Part shown: positions 10,808-19,286 of the stretch, one piece after another
Numbering within the stretch: the stretch's first letter is position 1
How the letters are laid out: every line of letters begins with the position of its first letter
Source of the DNA: a virus
Length of the DNA: 64,000 nucleotides
Reading direction: 5' to 3' (one strand)
IMG/VR virus record: IMGVR_UViG_3300035179_000003
Coordinates: 1 to 64,000 of that record
Program-made: the position numbers and the translations under genes
Notes under the pieces: model-generated
What the model saw: the letters and a program-made list of their open reading frames with translations, nothing else
Databases searched by the model: none
Told to the model about the DNA's origin: nothing

Positions 10808-12412
10808 ATGAATGATGATTTTGCGCCTTATATCATTATAGAACAATGGATGACAGATGCTTTTCCGGATTTGGAGTATATCCATTATCCAATAGCTAAT
10901 AATATGGTTGTTATAATTAATGATAATGGGTGGGAAAAAATTGTTGATAAATCTGATATAGAAAAATGTGTTCTATTTGATTCTAATATTGAAGGAGTAA
11001 AAGTTGGAGTTACTTCATTGTGGGCTAATACTACATTGTTGGAATCTATTGTAACAGAAAATGTTAGATTATCACCAACGTATTCTGATATTTTTACTTG
11101 TATTATATCAAATAATATAAGTATTAAACAAAGAATAGAGATCTTACAATCAGAAGACAAGCCAAAAGAAGAGTTTATTTTACCAATTGAAAAAAACCCT
11201 TTATTTCTTAGTCCTTATTTAACTTTTGGAGAAGACGAGGTATTTATTGATACTTGTTGTAATGTCGAAGATCTTGAAATTCCATTATTACAATTTTCAA
11301 GAAAGTTAAAGAGAAAGATTATTGTGTTATATACATATAATTATAAAATAAATGATTTTGATGTATTTAATTCTGCATTCAAAATTTTTATAATTAGTGA
11401 ACACAACAGAGATTTTGTACCAGTACAAATAAATGGCGGTGCAATTTCATGTCTTGGATTTTTAACCAATTCTATTTATATTCCAAAACAAATGGATAAA
11501 AATACTTCGCCATACATAAAATATGATGTAATATTAAAGGATTCATTTACTAATGTAATCTTTAGTATCGGTAATAATGATGAAATGTATATCGTTATTC
11601 CGGGAGCTTCTGCTTTAGTTACTTTTATAAAAGAAATATGTAAAAGGTATAAATCTTCTGAAAATTTTGAAGAATTGGATAAAATGTATTATGAAAAATA
11701 TTTAAAAGAGAATAAAAAAAACTATATCAACATGGCAAAACAATCATCCATTCAAATAAAAAATGAATTGGTGGTAAAAGCGCAGTCGCTTCAAAATGAA
11801 TATGAGATATTGTTAAACAGTGTTTTGGAAAAAGCGAAAATGTTTAATGTAGTTCAAACTCAAATTAAGTATTTCGATCAACAAAGGTTTGATGAAGAAC
11901 AGGAAAAAAAATTTTCAGAAAATTATGATATGACTGAAGCATTAGACCGTGTTCATTCGATAATAATTAATCCAAACGGTATTGTTACTGTGAACACGAA
12001 AGAAATTTATGTAAAAGACGAACGCACCGGTAAATGGCATGAAATAGGAAAATTTTCAATTGTCATAGGTATGATTTCACAAAATTATGATATTCGTACA
12101 ACTGTGAGAATTAGAAATATTAAATATGGAGATTTGATTGCTGGTTATCAGGCGCCGCATGTCTTTAGTAATTGTTTAATGTGTCATGGCAATATAGAAG
12201 CAAGTATTGCCGATGCGTATAAAAATAAAAATCTATATGAATTGGTTTTATTAATCATACAATTTTTACAACATGCCAATACCGGGGATAGGGCGGGTGA
12301 GAATATCGACAAATGGCCTGAAGTGCCAGAAGATGTTGTGAAAGGGTTTCATAAAGTAGAAATTAAAAAAATAGATATTCCAATTTTTATCAAAAAGGAG
12401 GAAAAGTCTTGA
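10808..12412 (+). CDS. E2-like ubiquitin-conjugating-type protein 1, 534 aa
   Basis: The C-terminal third carries GYQAPHVFSNCLMCHGN, with H451 and candidate catalytic C459. This resembles the P-H-[VI]-x(4-6)-C-x-G signature of bacterial E2-like/RWD-fold proteins found beside E1 and JAMM genes. A helix and FLQHANTGDRAG follow. The same two blocks recur in the next gene. The N-terminal 300 residues are unassigned; about 295-370 is a coiled coil (IKNELVVKAQSLQNEYEILL). The ATG at 10808 has a strong ribosome-binding site (ataggagg). The gene overlaps the next by 4 bp. The E2 assignment is inferred from motif and context (E1, JAMM and Ubl genes follow), not from a search. Confidence 0.55.
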   Translation: MNDDFAPYIIIEQWMTDAFPDLEYIHYPIANNMVVIINDNGWEKIVDKSDIEKCVLFDSNIEGVKVGVTSLWANTTLLESIVTENVRLSPTYSDIFTCIISNNISIKQRIEILQSEDKPKEEFILPIEKNPLFLSPYLTFGEDEVFIDTCCNVEDLEIPLLQFSRKLKRKIIVLYTYNYKINDFDVFNSAFKIFIISEHNRDFVPVQINGGAISCLGFLTNSIYIPKQMDKNTSPYIKYDVILKDSFTNVIFSIGNNDEMYIVIPGASALVTFIKEICKRYKSSENFEELDKMYYEKYLKENKKNYINMAKQSSIQIKNELVVKAQSLQNEYEILLNSVLEKAKMFNVVQTQIKYFDQQRFDEEQEKKFSENYDMTEALDRVHSIIINPNGIVTVNTKEIYVKDERTGKWHEIGKFSIVIGMISQNYDIRTTVRIRNIKYGDLIAGYQAPHVFSNCLMCHGNIEASIADAYKNKNLYELVLLIIQFLQHANTGDRAGENIDKWPEVPEDVVKGFHKVEIKKIDIPIFIKKEEKS

Positions 12413-13383
12413 AAATAATAATAAGACCTAGAGTTTTTGAATGGTATCCGAAACTTTTATTTTATGGTTTTGTTCCGGATGAATTTTTTACATCCGGTGG
12501 TCGTATATCAAGATCGATAGATGACATTGTTGTTTTTCAACATGAATCTGAAGAACAATTAAGAAGAATTTTAAATAATGATTCGATTTTTAATGAGCTA
12601 ATTGTAACTACAATTGATGACGGTTTTGTAGTTAATTTGCCACCAGCTAATCTTGTAGAAACGACAAGTCCCGTAACAGACGCTGATATCGTACCGGGAT
12701 TTGATGAAACGGAAGATGAAGATAATAGAATTATTGAAGTTAACCCTGATTATAGACTTCCTAAAAAAGAGGAAGAAAGCAATTATGCTATAAAAATAGC
12801 ACAATGTTTAAATAATTCCACTACATCTGAAGCAAGAGATTTAACGTCATTAATGGATCGATTTCATACATTAACAAATGAATTAATTAAAATTAAAAGA
12901 TTAATTGATTCAAAAGGTAAAGTGCTTGATTGTGATCCTGATGTTAAAAAGATCATAGAATCGATAATATATTTAAAAAAACATCCGAAAATTGATGATG
13001 TTTTTCTTTCCCCAGAGTTCAATATTAATATCGTCACAAAAGTTATAAAAGTAGAAGTTGAACATGTTATACGAATTTTGGGAAAGATGCTTATTATCCT
13101 TCCGTTGAAATTGTTCGTAGGGAGTAACCCCAATTTAAGTGGTATAAGAATTATTAATTTAACTCATATCATTTCTTATAATAGCACTCTGTATCAGGCT
13201 CCGCATGTTTATGAAAATGAGGGGTCTTGTTTTGGCGGAGCAACTTGTGATTTAATTATAAATGCAATTGCAGCCCGCGACGTAACTTTAACATTTTCGG
13301 CAATTTTACAGTTCTTAGAACTGCCGAATATTGAAGATGAAGCAGGCGAATGTGCGTTACTTTTGCCGGAGGCAAATAAATGA
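12409..13383 (+). CDS. E2-like protein 2 (paralogue), 324 aa
   Basis: The C-terminal 90 residues match gene 10808-12412 in order: LYQAPHVYENEGSCFGG (H266, candidate catalytic C274), a helix, then FLELPNIEDEAG against FLQHANTGDRAG. The spacing between His and Cys is identical (eight residues). The N-terminal 140 residues are acidic and unassigned. The gene overlaps both neighbours by ATGA, so its translation is coupled to theirs. A pair of E2-like proteins could act as a heterodimer or have different targets. If the Cys is not catalytic, one copy could be a structural partner. Confidence 0.55.
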   Translation: MKIIIRPRVFEWYPKLLFYGFVPDEFFTSGGRISRSIDDIVVFQHESEEQLRRILNNDSIFNELIVTTIDDGFVVNLPPANLVETTSPVTDADIVPGFDETEDEDNRIIEVNPDYRLPKKEEESNYAIKIAQCLNNSTTSEARDLTSLMDRFHTLTNELIKIKRLIDSKGKVLDCDPDVKKIIESIIYLKKHPKIDDVFLSPEFNINIVTKVIKVEVEHVIRILGKMLIILPLKLFVGSNPNLSGIRIINLTHIISYNSTLYQAPHVYENEGSCFGGATCDLIINAIAARDVTLTFSAILQFLELPNIEDEAGECALLLPEANK

Positions 13384-14228
13384 AATTACGAGTAATGAAT
13401 ACTAATATAGTATTCGCCCCTAAAATTATTATTGACCAAAAAGCAAAAGAGTGGATGAAAGCCATTGTCGATCTTCATGAAACTGAAGTTGGATTTTATG
13501 CATTGTCTACGATGAGGGATGACAATACCTTTTTTATTAGCGACGTGTATTACCCGAAACACAATATCGCTAATTTGGGACATTGCGAAATAGCAGATAG
13601 TGGTCAATCCGATTTCATGAGATTGCTTATAAGTCAAGGTAGAGAAGACGATGTTGGTAAGATTAAAGTATGGGGCCATTCTCATGTTGATATGGGAATA
13701 AGCCCAAGTAAAGATGACCATGATCAAGCCATGGAATCGGCACGAGACAATAAGGATTATTTTATCAGATTAATCACAAATAAGAAACATCAGATAGGCG
13801 TTTCTTTTTATGACTATAAAAAAAATCTGATTTATGATGAAGTAGGTTGGGAAATAGAAGTATCAAATGCCGAATCAATTTATGAAACCAAGGTAAATCA
13901 GATAATAAATATTATTACAGCAAATCAAAATTATACACAGGCGATAAAAGAAATTCGTCTGGTATTGGATAATAATGTTTTTTATCAAGAGGCATGTGAA
14001 TATATAAAATTAAAAAAAGAAGAAAACATGCCACAGCCTACATTTAATGGACAAACAAATTTGTTTGCGCATTCATATGATTTCGGTTTTAAAAATGATC
14101 AAAGATTTTTTTCAAAAAAAAACAAAACAAGTTTTACGCCATTTTTCGAAAGAGATCCCGTCGATCAGATGGGATTAGAAAACCTATTGGATGAAGATAG
14201 TTATTACGGAAAGGGGTTTTACGAATAA
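13380..14228 (+). CDS. JAMM/JAB-type metallopeptidase (deubiquitinase-like), 282 aa
   Basis: The complete JAMM zinc motif is present: E36 in ETEVGFY, then H100-x-H102-x7-S110-x2-D113 (GHSHVDMGISPSKDD). This fold cleaves isopeptide bonds or C-terminal extensions of ubiquitin-like proteins. Residues about 20-160 form the catalytic domain. The C-terminal 120 residues are unassigned and probably partly disordered. The gene overlaps E2-like 2 by 4 bp and the E1-like gene by 1 bp. Placed with E1, E2 and Ubl genes, its likely jobs are maturing the tandem Ubl and removing it from targets. Confidence 0.88.
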   Translation: MKLRVMNTNIVFAPKIIIDQKAKEWMKAIVDLHETEVGFYALSTMRDDNTFFISDVYYPKHNIANLGHCEIADSGQSDFMRLLISQGREDDVGKIKVWGHSHVDMGISPSKDDHDQAMESARDNKDYFIRLITNKKHQIGVSFYDYKKNLIYDEVGWEIEVSNAESIYETKVNQIINIITANQNYTQAIKEIRLVLDNNVFYQEACEYIKLKKEENMPQPTFNGQTNLFAHSYDFGFKNDQRFFSKKNKTSFTPFFERDPVDQMGLENLLDEDSYYGKGFYE

Positions 14229-14956
14229 TGGATTACAATCGTCAAAACAAATTATTGAATGTTGCAAAAATAGGTAAAAAAAGTATCACTTTAATAGGAG
14301 CCGGGGCTGTTGGATCACACGTTGCCTTGTTATTGACCCAAATGGGATGGGGCGATCAAAGCAGTGACCAAGGAGTTATTAACGTATTTGACTTTGATAA
14401 AGTCGAAGAGCATAATCTGGCAAATCAGATATATGATCCGTCTCATGTCGGAAAATTCAAGGTTGATGCTCTTAATGAGGCAATTAAGAAAAAGTGTGGT
14501 TTCGGAATTAATACTTTTAATGAAAAAGTAATTAATCAAACCGCGAACGTTCAATCTACCTATGTTTTTCTTATGGTGGATACCATGGCAGGCAGAAAAG
14601 AAATTTTTGATAACTGCCTGCGTTATAGTTTCGATACCCAGTTGGTAATCGAGACTCGAATGGGGTTAGATGAAGGTCGAATTTATGCATTCAATCCCGC
14701 AAATAGGGAGCATTTACGTGAGTGGGAATTTTCCTTGTATTCAGATCAAGAGGCCGAATTATCATTATGCGGGACCAGTATGGCTATAGCGATGACCGCT
14801 TGGTATATTGCAAGTCTTGCAGTTTCCAGAGTAATTCAGCATTTTAATGATAAAAAAGATTTATGGAATGAATTTCACTTTTGTTTATGTCCCGAATCAT
14901 ATTATTATAGAAGGTTTAGTGAAAAACCTTTTATGTTACAACAATTTAATTCATAA
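14228..14956 (+). CDS. ThiF/E1-like adenylyltransferase, 242 aa
   Basis: This is a Rossmann-fold E1-like enzyme that would adenylate the C-terminus of a ubiquitin-like protein. The nucleotide-binding loop is GAGAVGS (24-30). FDFDKVEEHNLANQIYD (55-70) holds the Asp, Asn and adjacent residues of the family. K76 in VGKFKVD and D118 in VDTMAGRKE follow the ThiF pattern. C181 in LSLCGTS is a candidate for the thioester-forming Cys. It is about the length of ThiF/MoeB without a C-terminal extension. The TAATG junction couples it to the JAMM gene, and the Ubl gene starts 12 bp downstream. Confidence 0.88.
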   Translation: MDYNRQNKLLNVAKIGKKSITLIGAGAVGSHVALLLTQMGWGDQSSDQGVINVFDFDKVEEHNLANQIYDPSHVGKFKVDALNEAIKKKCGFGINTFNEKVINQTANVQSTYVFLMVDTMAGRKEIFDNCLRYSFDTQLVIETRMGLDEGRIYAFNPANREHLREWEFSLYSDQEAELSLCGTSMAIAMTAWYIASLAVSRVIQHFNDKKDLWNEFHFCLCPESYYYRRFSEKPFMLQQFNS

Positions 14957-14968
14957 GGAGTAATAAAG

Positions 14969-15424
14969 ATGATTCTGGTAAAATTGATGAAGTTGGGAAT
15001 TCCGGTTGTTGAATACAGCATGGAAGATGGAGCAACCGTTTCCGATTTATTTGAAACGGCTGATGAGGAGTTCAAGGGAACAGTAACCATTCTTGACCGT
15101 CCCGTAGATGAAGACACGGTTCTTCGTGATGGTGACCGGGTTTTCGTATCGGCCAAAGTAAAAGGCAGCACCCCTCTTGAGGTAAAACTCTTGAGGGTCG
15201 GCGGCGCTACAACCAAAACCTATGTAGTGGAATCTGGGACAAGTCTCGGGGATTTCATTAATGGGTTGGAAGACAAGGATGATTACATAGACGCAAGCGG
15301 TAATCACAAGTGGACCTACACCGATGTTGTGGGCGTCGTATTGAGCCTTGGATATACATTCTCTGGCACTCCGGAACAGGTAATACGCATTCTCCTGTCC
15401 AAAAAGACCAAGGGAAGCAGGTAA
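14969..15424 (+). CDS. Tandem beta-grasp ubiquitin-like protein, 151 aa
   Basis: Two Ubl-like units are visible. Unit 1 (about 1-70) follows the ThiS/MoaD pattern: DRPVDEDTVLRDGDRVFVSA, ending in KVKGS. Unit 2 (about 71-151) begins LEVKLLRVGG and ends LLSKKTKGSR. Both units end with S-[AK]-K-x-K-G-S, so cleavage after Gly would give two modifiers with a C-terminal ...KG. The protein does not end in Gly-Gly. The start has a good ribosome-binding site (aaggag). The gene is about 50% G+C, clearly above its neighbours, and a terminator follows. It is the last clear gene of the operon. Confidence 0.75.
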   Translation: MILVKLMKLGIPVVEYSMEDGATVSDLFETADEEFKGTVTILDRPVDEDTVLRDGDRVFVSAKVKGSTPLEVKLLRVGGATTKTYVVESGTSLGDFINGLEDKDDYIDASGNHKWTYTDVVGVVLSLGYTFSGTPEQVIRILLSKKTKGSR

Positions 15425-15446: not shown

Positions 15447-15620
15447 ATGGTACAGGATGCTATGTATCAGCTAATTTTTAACCTGATGTTATTCCTTTTT
15501 GATAGGGGGCCGAAAGGCTCCCTTTTTAGCTATCAAATGCCAGCTGTTGGAGATCGCGGGGGCAATTGCTCTGGTAAAGATTGTGATTGTGATTCAATAG
15601 GTTCGGTTTCTACAACCTGA
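15447..15620 (+). CDS. Possible small ORF after the Ubl gene, 57 aa
   Basis: ATG at 15447 has a good ribosome-binding site (aaaaaaggag at 15431-15440). It opens a frame of 57 codons starting MVQDAMYQLIFNLMLFLFD, with one hydrophobic stretch. However, it reads through the terminator hairpin and overlaps the 3' end of the convergent portal gene by 88 bp. It could be a real small membrane peptide translated before termination, or a chance frame behind a leftover ribosome-binding site. Confidence 0.25.
   Translation: MVQDAMYQLIFNLMLFLFDRGPKGSLFSYQMPAVGDRGGNCSGKDCDCDSIGSVSTT
15499..15536. terminator. Bidirectional hairpin terminator
   Basis: An inner GC-rich stem (ggggcc/ggctccc around a gaaa loop) is followed by ttttt on the plus strand. 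An outer stem ttgatag/ctatcaa encloses it. It separates the convergent Ubl operon (plus) and portal operon (minus). Confidence 0.8.
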
Positions 15621-17861: not shown

Positions 17862-19202
17862 TTATGTTAAATAAATTGAACCTGTATGAAATATAGTGGT
17901 AATTTTTTTTATTCCAAAATTTCCATCACTACAACAAACAGTTTTTCCATATGTTGAACACCCTTTAACAATATGTATTTTTCTTTTTATAAATACAAAA
18001 TCACCAGGCTGTATTGAATATCTTTGTTTACGGATAGATGGCTTAAAACCCTTTCTATTCAACTGCAAAACCCTATTATTTCTATGTTTCTGCTTAAATA
18101 TAATTGGAGCCACTTTTCTCTGTTCGTTTCCACCAGCTATTACAAAAGCATCGTTATAATGGCTTTTTTCTAACCTCAAAATATTTCTTTTAACAAAAGT
18201 CTCATTTCCATAAATTAACTTACAATTTGATAAAATATTTCTGAATTTATTCCTTATTATACTCATAAATGTTGCATCTTTGTAAACCTTATTCTTTTTT
18301 AACACATCATACAACTTGTTCTTATGCAATTTCTTATGACATCTCTCATGCAACAAAGCCAAATTCTTCTCCCGGTCTATTCCACCGTTACTCCTCGATA
18401 TAATGTGGTGAATATGAAAACTGTTACCTTTTGAAAACTCTTTACCGCATAACTGACATCTTCCCTGCTCCCGGAACATTAAAAAACTTCTCATGTTTTG
18501 ATATTCAAACAACGATCCTTGTTGATATTGTATTCCTGCTATATCTGGATTCTCTATTTTCTGAATATCAAAATTACCTACTTCAATTACAACATTCTTA
18601 ATTGGTAATAGTTTTTTTAGCTTGTTAATCAAGGTTATGTGGGTGTTGAATCTTCTCTGTGTTGAAGGTGGTAAATAACCAATAGCTGTTTTTCTATTGT
18701 TAAATCTTGGCTTTCTATACCACAATCTACTCCTTCTACCCCTTCGATACATTCTCTTTTCTATAAGTCTCTCAGATGTCCTTTGATCCAAAAGAAGCGT
18801 TCCTGCTACTATTTCTTTTTTATCAGTTATTGCTGAAAAACCTATATTCTTAAAACCGCTGTCTATTCCCAAAGAACAATCTTGAACCTGATTCTCACAC
18901 TCAAAATTCAATTTAATAACAAATGGATTCTGCTTTACAACATGCGCTTTTCCTCCTTCTAAAAGATGCCTTGCCTTTGTACTTGTGCATGGCATTAAAG
19001 GTTTTCCATTAATTGACAATACAAACACAATGCTTTTAAAGCCGGGTGCTTGTTCCCGTTGATCCACTTCGAGATTGTTTAAAGTCCGTACTTTATCCTG
19101 TACACTGACTCTTTCAAGTCTGTTTAATACAGGATTTACAGAGCAAGGAACTAGTGGAGTATTCCTTGGTGTGTTCTTAAACTTTACTTTAAACTGCTGC
19201 AT
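17862..19202 (-). CDS. iscB: IscB RNA-guided nuclease (RRXRR, RuvC, HNH), up to 446 aa
   Basis: Domains in order: RRXRR/PLMP domain near 59-100 (VLSINGKPLMPCTSTKARHL); RuvC-I with D114 (GIDSGFKNIG); Arg-rich bridge helix 149-171; RuvC-II with E207 (VVIEVGNFD); HNH 249-293 with CQLC, HIHHI, N280 and H289; RuvC-III with H348 and D351 (SHYNDAF). All catalytic residues are intact. Known IscBs start at the PLMP domain. Here a GTG at codon 59 (about 19028) would be that start, and the preceding 58 codons overlap the predicted omega-RNA. Which start is used is undecided. The enzyme would cut DNA matching the omega-RNA guide. Confidence 0.9.
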   Translation of the reverse strand: MQQFKVKFKNTPRNTPLVPCSVNPVLNRLERVSVQDKVRTLNNLEVDQREQAPGFKSIVFVLSINGKPLMPCTSTKARHLLEGGKAHVVKQNPFVIKLNFECENQVQDCSLGIDSGFKNIGFSAITDKKEIVAGTLLLDQRTSERLIEKRMYRRGRRSRLWYRKPRFNNRKTAIGYLPPSTQRRFNTHITLINKLKKLLPIKNVVIEVGNFDIQKIENPDIAGIQYQQGSLFEYQNMRSFLMFREQGRCQLCGKEFSKGNSFHIHHIISRSNGGIDREKNLALLHERCHKKLHKNKLYDVLKKNKVYKDATFMSIIRNKFRNILSNCKLIYGNETFVKRNILRLEKSHYNDAFVIAGGNEQRKVAPIIFKQKHRNNRVLQLNRKGFKPSIRKQRYSIQPGDFVFIKRKIHIVKGCSTYGKTVCCSDGNFGIKKITTIFHTGSIYLT

Positions 19203-19286
19203 AGATAAACAACCTAAGCCCTCTAATCAACTCTTACGTTGAATCTCACGATTCAAGCTCCGGCCCTTGTGGCCGGAGTAGTTGAC
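19029..19286 (-). ncRNA. Predicted IscB omega-RNA
   Basis: IscB guide RNAs lie directly 5' of the PLMP domain. This stretch of about 258 nt has the expected order: a left-end hairpin next to gtcaactactcc, then gcttgaatcgtgag, a paired aacacaccaagg/ccttgctct region, and ctcgaagtggatcaacggg followed by aacaagcacccggc. These blocks resemble IscB omega-RNAs as I recall them. The guide should be the roughly 16 nt just outside the left end (gaacagaactttcagc, minus strand, 19302-19287), which belongs to the 3' end of the neighbouring phage gene. Confidence 0.65.

What the first reader, a model, noticed from the sequence alone, without database searches (positions are those of the whole stretch)
14969..15424. 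Tandem Ubl with two K-x-K-G-S processing-like ends
Both beta-grasp units end in S-[AK]-K-x-K-G-S (VSAKVKGST and LSKKTKGSR). A JAMM peptidase cutting after Gly would release two modifiers ending in KG, like a polyubiquitin precursor. PRTRC-type Ubls also end in KG, as I recall, rather than GG.
Basis: partly seen in the sequence, partly recalled or inferred. Interest (0 to 1): 0.8.

Follow-up and report, generated by a model that had tools for sequence, protein, structure and literature searches.

The report
Phage two-in-one ubiquitin-like protein precursor
A bacterial virus carries a complete ubiquitin-like protein-tagging kit whose tag gene encodes two fused tags, each ending in the same conserved cut-like signal, so the phage probably makes its tags as a precursor that its own peptidase splits, much as cells make ubiquitin.

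Summary
The 151-aa protein has two beta-grasp domains. Each is followed by K-G-S, in a flexible linker (residues 65-67) and in a flexible tail (148-150). The protein closes an operon of two E2-like proteins, a JAMM peptidase and an E1-like enzyme in an IMG/VR phage record.

In ten window-type di-Ubls only 7 of 146 gap-free columns are invariant, and four of them are the two KG pairs. Across 68 distinct Ubl proteins from phage and bacterial contigs the Gly is kept in 65, followed by Asn in 58. Tandem Ubls arose or were lost at least five or six times on the E1 tree, and each tandem keeps the motif at its inner junction.

Most likely the JAMM peptidase cuts both sites and releases two modifiers, activated by the E1 and carried by the E2s. 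Cleavage itself is untested, and the cut position (after Gly, or after the conserved Asn/Ser) is open. A fused ISG15-like di-Ubl is the main rival. Tandem Ubls beside JAB, E1 and E2 genes were described in bacteria in 2006: a new variant of a known kind.

The parts
10808..12412 (+). E2a: 534-aa E2-like protein, long N-terminal extension plus C-terminal UBC-fold core; P450-H451...C459-x-G461 active-site-like motif at 12155-12190
   Evidence: Core model pLDDT 93; the structural matches are almost all ubiquitin E2s, best Z 7.9 over 122 residues; T81, P134, H135, C143, G145 and D178 of the core invariant in 37 sequences
12409..13383 (+). E2b: second E2-like protein, 324 aa (TTG start), P265-H266...C274-x-G276 at 13201-13236
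   Evidence: Homologous to the C-terminal half of E2a (BLASTP 5e-8); Cys kept in all 11 E2b proteins of the window-type lineage
13380..14228 (+). JAMM/JAB metallopeptidase-like protein, 282 aa; HSHVDMGISPSKDD at 13677-13718
   Evidence: Motif H-x-H-x7-8-[ST]-x2-D in 95 of 97 distinct homologues; Pfam Prok-JAB only weak, E 0.08, below cut-off
14228..14956 (+). E1-like (ThiF/MoeB/UBA) adenylating enzyme, 242 aa; candidate catalytic Cys181 at 14768-14770
   Evidence: Pfam ThiF 2.3e-21; G24, G26, D55, N63, Q67, K78, D118 and R123 invariant, C181 in 99 of 100 homologues; nearest solved chains are UBA5, 5.9e-13
14969..15424 (+). Tandem ubiquitin-like protein, 151 aa
14969..15169 (+). Ubl unit 1, residues 1-67; K65-G66-S67 at 15161-15169
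   Evidence: HMM of single Ubls from other phages, 5e-25 (this unit was one of the nine seeds)
15170..15421 (+). Ubl unit 2, residues 68-151; K148-G149-S150 at 15410-15418
   Evidence: Second beta-grasp in the model; 28% identical to unit 1 in the pairwise alignment
15504..15523 (+). Terminator-like hairpin after the Ubl gene, before the convergent portal-like gene
   Evidence: 8-pair stem plus T-run

Best explanation
The phage encodes a complete ubiquitin-like conjugation cassette. Its modifier is made as a head-to-tail precursor of two beta-grasp modifiers. The phage's own JAMM peptidase cuts in the flexible linker and in the tail, most likely after the Gly of K-G-[N/S], and frees two modifiers with a C-terminal Lys-Gly. 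The E1 adenylates that Gly and takes the modifier on Cys181; the E2-like proteins carry it on their conserved Cys to targets; the same JAMM can remove it again. Shown here by sequence and comparison: the domains, the intact active-site motifs, the operon, and constraint on both KG sites. Inferred: that cleavage happens, at both sites, after Gly; that the product is conjugated to proteins. Not known: the targets.
For: Both KG pairs are invariant in ten divergent di-Ubls although the two units are only about 23-41% alike. The +1 residue is Asn at both sites in nine of them and Ser at both sites in the window, as if one partner reads both. Tandem Ubls changed state at least 5-6 times on the E1 tree, and the tandems L015 (KGG/KGG), L059 (KGN/KGN), L070 (KGN/KGN), L098 (RGN x3) and L100 (RGN x2) keep the motif at inner and outer ends; L080 (RGA/RGA) does too but was not in the tree. 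Some relatives carry extensions after the motif that would have to be removed: 17 aa in L011, 21 aa in L047, a Lys-rich 24 aa in L081, an acidic tail in L058, about 168 aa or more in L111 and L115. Both sites are in or next to flexible stretches of the model. JAMM, E1 and E2 signature residues are intact. Ubl, E2, JAMM and E1 genes sit together in most loci. PRTRC Ubls end in or near KG.
Against: No cleavage data. In this group almost no Ubl ends directly at the Gly: 31 of 68 end at the following residue, usually Asn, whose conservation a discarded residue would not need. Two Ubls have S in place of G (KSN in L012, L073) and one ends KNG (L119). Linker glycines can be kept for structural reasons. 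BilA, a known bacterial di-Ubl, is described as ISG15-like.
Confidence: 0.57

Rival explanations
1. ISG15/BilA-like: the two units stay fused. The JAMM only trims the last residue or residues, and the whole di-Ubl is conjugated through the second unit's C-terminus.
For: Structure searches return ISG15 next to linear di-ubiquitin. BilA of the Bil system is described as two consecutive Ubl domains whose C-terminus is trimmed by its DUB (PMC11354881). Unit 2 has drifted from the single-Ubl family: the single-Ubl HMM finds unit 1 but not unit 2 of the window, as if the units do different jobs.
Against: The inner KG[N/S] is as invariant as the outer one, and independent tandems keep the inner motif. 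An unused inner site should drift.
Confidence: 0.25
2. Same precursor idea, but the cut falls one residue later: the mature modifiers end in -KGN (here -KGS) and the conserved Asn/Ser (or Gly/Ala in relatives) is the activated end.
For: N follows G in 58 of 68 and 31 of 68 end exactly there with no tail. Tails beyond that point are variable in sequence and length. In L012 and L073 the Gly is replaced but the Asn kept. Relatives with GG (L015, L117, L118) carry one or two more residues after GG.
Against: From general knowledge, E1-activated modifiers end in Gly, and UFM1 is a precedent for a single Gly followed by a short removed tail. The E1 profile's best solved matches are UBA5, the UFM1 E1. 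Two of three PRTRC-type Ubls read here end exactly in KG.
Confidence: 0.13
3. A sulfur-carrier pair of the ThiS/MoaD type with no protein conjugation.
For: Weak ThiS similarity (Pfam ThiS E 0.02); for L015 MoaD, ThiS and SAMP models below cut-off.
Against: Two E2-like proteins with the E2 Cys and a JAMM in the same overlapping operon; no rhodanese, ThiG or MoaE found among the operon proteins.
Confidence: 0.05

Closest known systems
Bacterial poly-Ubl operons, type 6e (Iyer, Burroughs and Aravind 2006, PMC1779556)
   Same: One to three tandem Ubl repeats next to JAB and E1 genes, with an E2/RWD-like protein
   Different: There JAB is usually fused to E1 and the E2 homologue lacks the Cys; here the enzymes are separate genes in a phage and the E2s have a Cys
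Type 6d operons of the same paper
   Same: Stand-alone small Ubl with conserved C-terminal Gly, JAB, E1 and a Cys-bearing E2
   Different: 6d is described with a single small Ubl, a JAB-N domain and an extra alpha-helical protein; the window has a di-Ubl and two E2s
PRTRC system (plasmids and genomic islands)
   Same: Ubl (protein C) ending in or near KG, protein A with a JAMM-like motif, protein B with a Cys-x-G motif, ThiF; order C, B, A, ThiF
   Different: Window E1 scores 43 bits against the PRTRC ThiF cut-off of 145 and the other window proteins hit no PRTRC model; no ParB in the operon
Bil (BilABCD)
   Same: Two fused Ubl domains, E2, JAMM-type DUB and E1 in one operon
   Different: Known Bil is a bacterial anti-phage defence; this operon sits in phages. 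Window E1 matches BilD only at 2e-4 and no other Bil model was hit; inner KG site conserved
crAss-like and Flavobacterium phage ThiF/JAB clusters (NC_055880, NC_031914)
   Same: Phage-borne Ubl-like protein, JAMM and ThiF in a row among replication genes
   Different: Distant: long E1 branches; a single Ubl-like domain with a long C-terminal extension
Polyubiquitin precursors of eukaryotes
   Same: Head-to-tail modifiers, extra residue after the last unit, needs a processing peptidase (general knowledge)
   Different: Single Gly preceded by Lys; the two units differ from each other; not shown to be homologous as a precursor

Membership tests
Ubiquitin-like modifier (beta-grasp) | beta-grasp fold with flexible C-terminal Gly-containing tail | tested here: met
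   Model and fold search
JAMM/JAB metallopeptidase | H-x-H-x7-S-x2-D with upstream Glu | tested here: met
   HSHVDMGISPSKDD; Glu36 invariant in a ten-row alignment
JAMM/JAB metallopeptidase | Pfam Prok-JAB score over cut-off | tested here: not met
   13.3 bits against 25; the assignment rests on motif and gene context
E1-like (ThiF/MoeB/UBA) | Rossmann GxGxxG, catalytic Asp/Lys and Cys | tested here: met
   ThiF 2.3e-21; conserved residues. The Arg of the usual NLxRQ motif is Asn here in 93 of 100
E2 (UBC) | UBC fold with catalytic Cys | tested here: met
   Z 7.9, almost all top-50 matches E2s; Cys invariant. Foldseek alone not significant
PRTRC system | Members over the NCBIfam PRTRC cut-offs | tested here: not met
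   E1 43 of 145 bits; Ubl, JAMM and E2s no hit
Bil (BilABCD) | Match to the PADLOC Bil models | tested here: not met
   Only a weak E1 match to BilD, 2e-4
Bil (BilABCD) | Anti-phage defence function | not testable with these tools
   Needs experiment
Poly-Ubl operon type 6e | JAB fused to E1 in most, and Cys-less E2/RWD | tested here: not met
   Separate genes; Cys present
Polyubiquitin-like precursor | Cleavage between the units | not testable with these tools
   Only conservation of the site was tested

The most novel reading that the evidence does not exclude
One phage polyprotein yields two different modifiers, each handled by its own E2. Loci with two diverged Ubl units (window lineage, L070) have two Cys-bearing E2s. 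Loci with two E2 genes but one Ubl mostly have a second E2 lacking the His or Cys (L061 and several Obscuribacterales loci; L106 keeps both). Loci with near-identical repeats have one E2 (L015, L059, L080) or a second E2 with the His replaced (L098, L100).
Probability: 0.3. Interest if true: 0.78.

Novelty: new variant of a known kind. Interest (0 to 1): 0.6.

Why it matters
Ubiquitin-like conjugation in bacteria is known mainly as anti-phage defence. Here phages themselves carry the full kit as a fixed part of the genome: in this lineage it sits between a nuclease-like gene and, in most of the contigs read, the portal-like gene. Repeated appearance of tandem Ubls with the same junction motif makes the origin of polyubiquitin-style precursors testable with small soluble proteins, and the near-universal G-N end asks whether Gly is really the only usable end of such a modifier.

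Tried and rejected
PRTRC and Bil membership: tested with NCBIfam and PADLOC, not met. Sulfur carrier only: not favoured given E2 and JAMM. Foreign origin of the Ubl gene from its high G+C (0.47 against 0.28-0.36 for its neighbours): in 76 loci Ubl GC3 exceeds E1 GC3 in only 47, so no general rule. Single-sequence searches found only the same virus or one relative; alignments were needed. The Ubl itself finds nothing in the annotated phage records. Papers on Bub and Bil by Ye, Gong and Chambers are not in the library, so overlap with them could not be checked; no held paper describing these phage operons turned up in the searches made.

Full report
What was checked. The ORF at 14969-15424 encodes 151 residues with VSAKVKGST at 60-68 and LSKKTKGSR at 143-151. 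The genes before it overlap or abut: E2a/E2b by 4 bases, E2b/JAMM by 4, JAMM/E1 by 1, and 12 bases lie between E1 and Ubl; a terminator-like hairpin follows at 15504-15523. The window lies in an 80,022-base IMG/VR virus record; weak baseplate-wedge matches suggest a tailed phage.

Structure. The AlphaFold model built from ten window-type sequences shows two beta-grasp units with low confidence only in the linker around 62-68 and at the end. Foldseek ranks linear di-ubiquitin and ISG15 first, E about 1e-6; VIA-align gives MoaD-like, SAMP1, ubiquitin and SUMO matches at Z 8-9.5, mostly for the single units.

Partners. E1: Pfam ThiF 2.3e-21; catalytic positions invariant or nearly so in 100 sequences, with Asn in place of the usual Arg of NLxRQ in 93; nearest solved chains by profile are UBA5. 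JAMM: exact H-x-H-x7-S-x2-D, kept in 95 of 97 distinct homologues when 7 or 8 residues and S or T are allowed. E2s: E2a and E2b are paralogues; the E2a core model, pLDDT 93, matches E2 enzymes almost exclusively, Z 7.9, and P-H-x7-C-x-G stands where E2s have HPN and the catalytic Cys. The Z is middling and Foldseek's own E-values are not significant, so the E2 assignment rests on motif, fold and gene context together.

Homologues. E1 alignments found 38 and then 80 (capped) viral loci and 24 genome loci, many from Melainabacteria/Obscuribacterales MAGs. Most complete loci carry Ubl, one or two E2s, JAMM and E1 side by side. The HMMs used for that survey were built from some of the same loci, so their E-values are not independent. 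A window-type lineage (L047-L058) shares two E2s, JAMM, E1 and a multi-Ubl gene. A VRR-NUC-like gene precedes the operon in most of them, and a portal-like gene follows on the other strand in most of the contigs read (L053 and L056 have other genes there). These neighbour assignments are by position and sequence resemblance to the window's genes, not by a separate search. The E1 tree supports window plus ten relatives as one clade at 100/99.

The KG sites. In ten di-Ubls the invariant columns are L27, K65, G66, G78, G111, K148 and G149; the chance that four named columns are all among 7 invariant of 146 is about 2e-6. The units differ from each other (about 23-41% identity), so copying between them does not explain it. 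The +1 position is Asn at both sites in nine and Ser at both in the window. Over 68 distinct Ubl proteins the end motif is GN in 58, GG in 4, GS in 2, SN in 2, GA in 1 and NG in 1, preceded by K or R in 57 (the motif list was compiled by hand). 31 have no residue after the pair, 31 have one to four, six have nine or more. L058, with Ubl-like stretches ending IAGN and IKGN and an acidic tail, lies outside this count.

Repeated tandems. On the E1 tree the tandem state needs at least five changes forced by well supported branches and six in all. L015, L059 and L080 have units 64-72% identical (66-67% at DNA level), L098 and L100 73-99%; all keep the motif at each junction. L080 was not in the tree because its E1 ORF is short.

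Reading. Precursor processing explains constraint at the inner site, joint +1 identity, long extensions in some relatives, and the recurrent JAMM gene. The fused ISG15-like reading explains the fold and the divergence of unit 2 but not the inner site. Cut register: Gly is favoured by E1 chemistry, by UFM1 as precedent (general knowledge), by the UBA5 match and by KG-ended PRTRC-type Ubls; the conserved Asn and the many tail-less proteins speak for a later cut. This cannot be settled by sequence.

Two E2s. In the window lineage E2b keeps Cys in all 11; in L061 and most Obscuribacterales loci with one Ubl the second E2 has lost His or Cys, L106 being an exception. L070, with two diverged Ubl units, has a second Cys-bearing E2. 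This suggests one E2 per modifier, from few independent events.

Known or new. Tandem Ubls with JAB, E1 and E2 homologues were reported in bacteria in 2006, and Bil uses a fused di-Ubl. What is added here: phage-borne kits with separate E1, E2 and JAMM genes, conserved inner and outer junction motifs, repeated tandem formation, and the G-N end. The Bub and Bil primary papers could not be read, so part of this may already be described there.

Noticed in passing
window 17862-19286 (-): IscB-like HNH protein (phrog_119, 1.8e-63) with a HEARO/omega RNA at 19058-19286 (113 bits), among portal-side genes; relatives L047, L048, L051 and L054 show no such gene there, so it looks like an inserted RNA-guided nuclease element.
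   Followed up: partly
L059 6103-6357 (and L060): A group I intron (Rfam RF00028, 58.9 bits) splits the JAMM gene at its active-site H-S-H motif, in two separately assembled contigs.
   Followed up: partly
L008 2671-4963: In Flavobacterium phage Fpv1 the JAMM gene appears interrupted by a homing-endonuclease-like gene on the other strand; JAMM-like parts lie on both sides.
   Followed up: no
L012 10234-10899, L066 10416-11153, L071 10375-10680, L073 10230-10895: A second, separate Ubl gene with up to three units ending in V[QEK]GA or IEGA; L011 has a second E2-like and JAMM-like gene, hinting at two parallel systems in one phage.
   Followed up: no
L006, L021-L043: A distinct branch whose Ubls end in -KADNA or -KADGGVY rather than -KGN; the terminal Ala/Gly differs from the window family.
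   Followed up: partly
window 14969-15424: Ubl gene G+C 0.47 against 0.28-0.36 for the rest of the operon; seen in several window-type relatives but not a general rule.
   Followed up: partly
window 14423-14425 (E1 residue 66): The family has Asn where canonical E1/MoeB/ThiF proteins have the Arg of NLxRQ, in 93 of 100 sequences.
   Followed up: no
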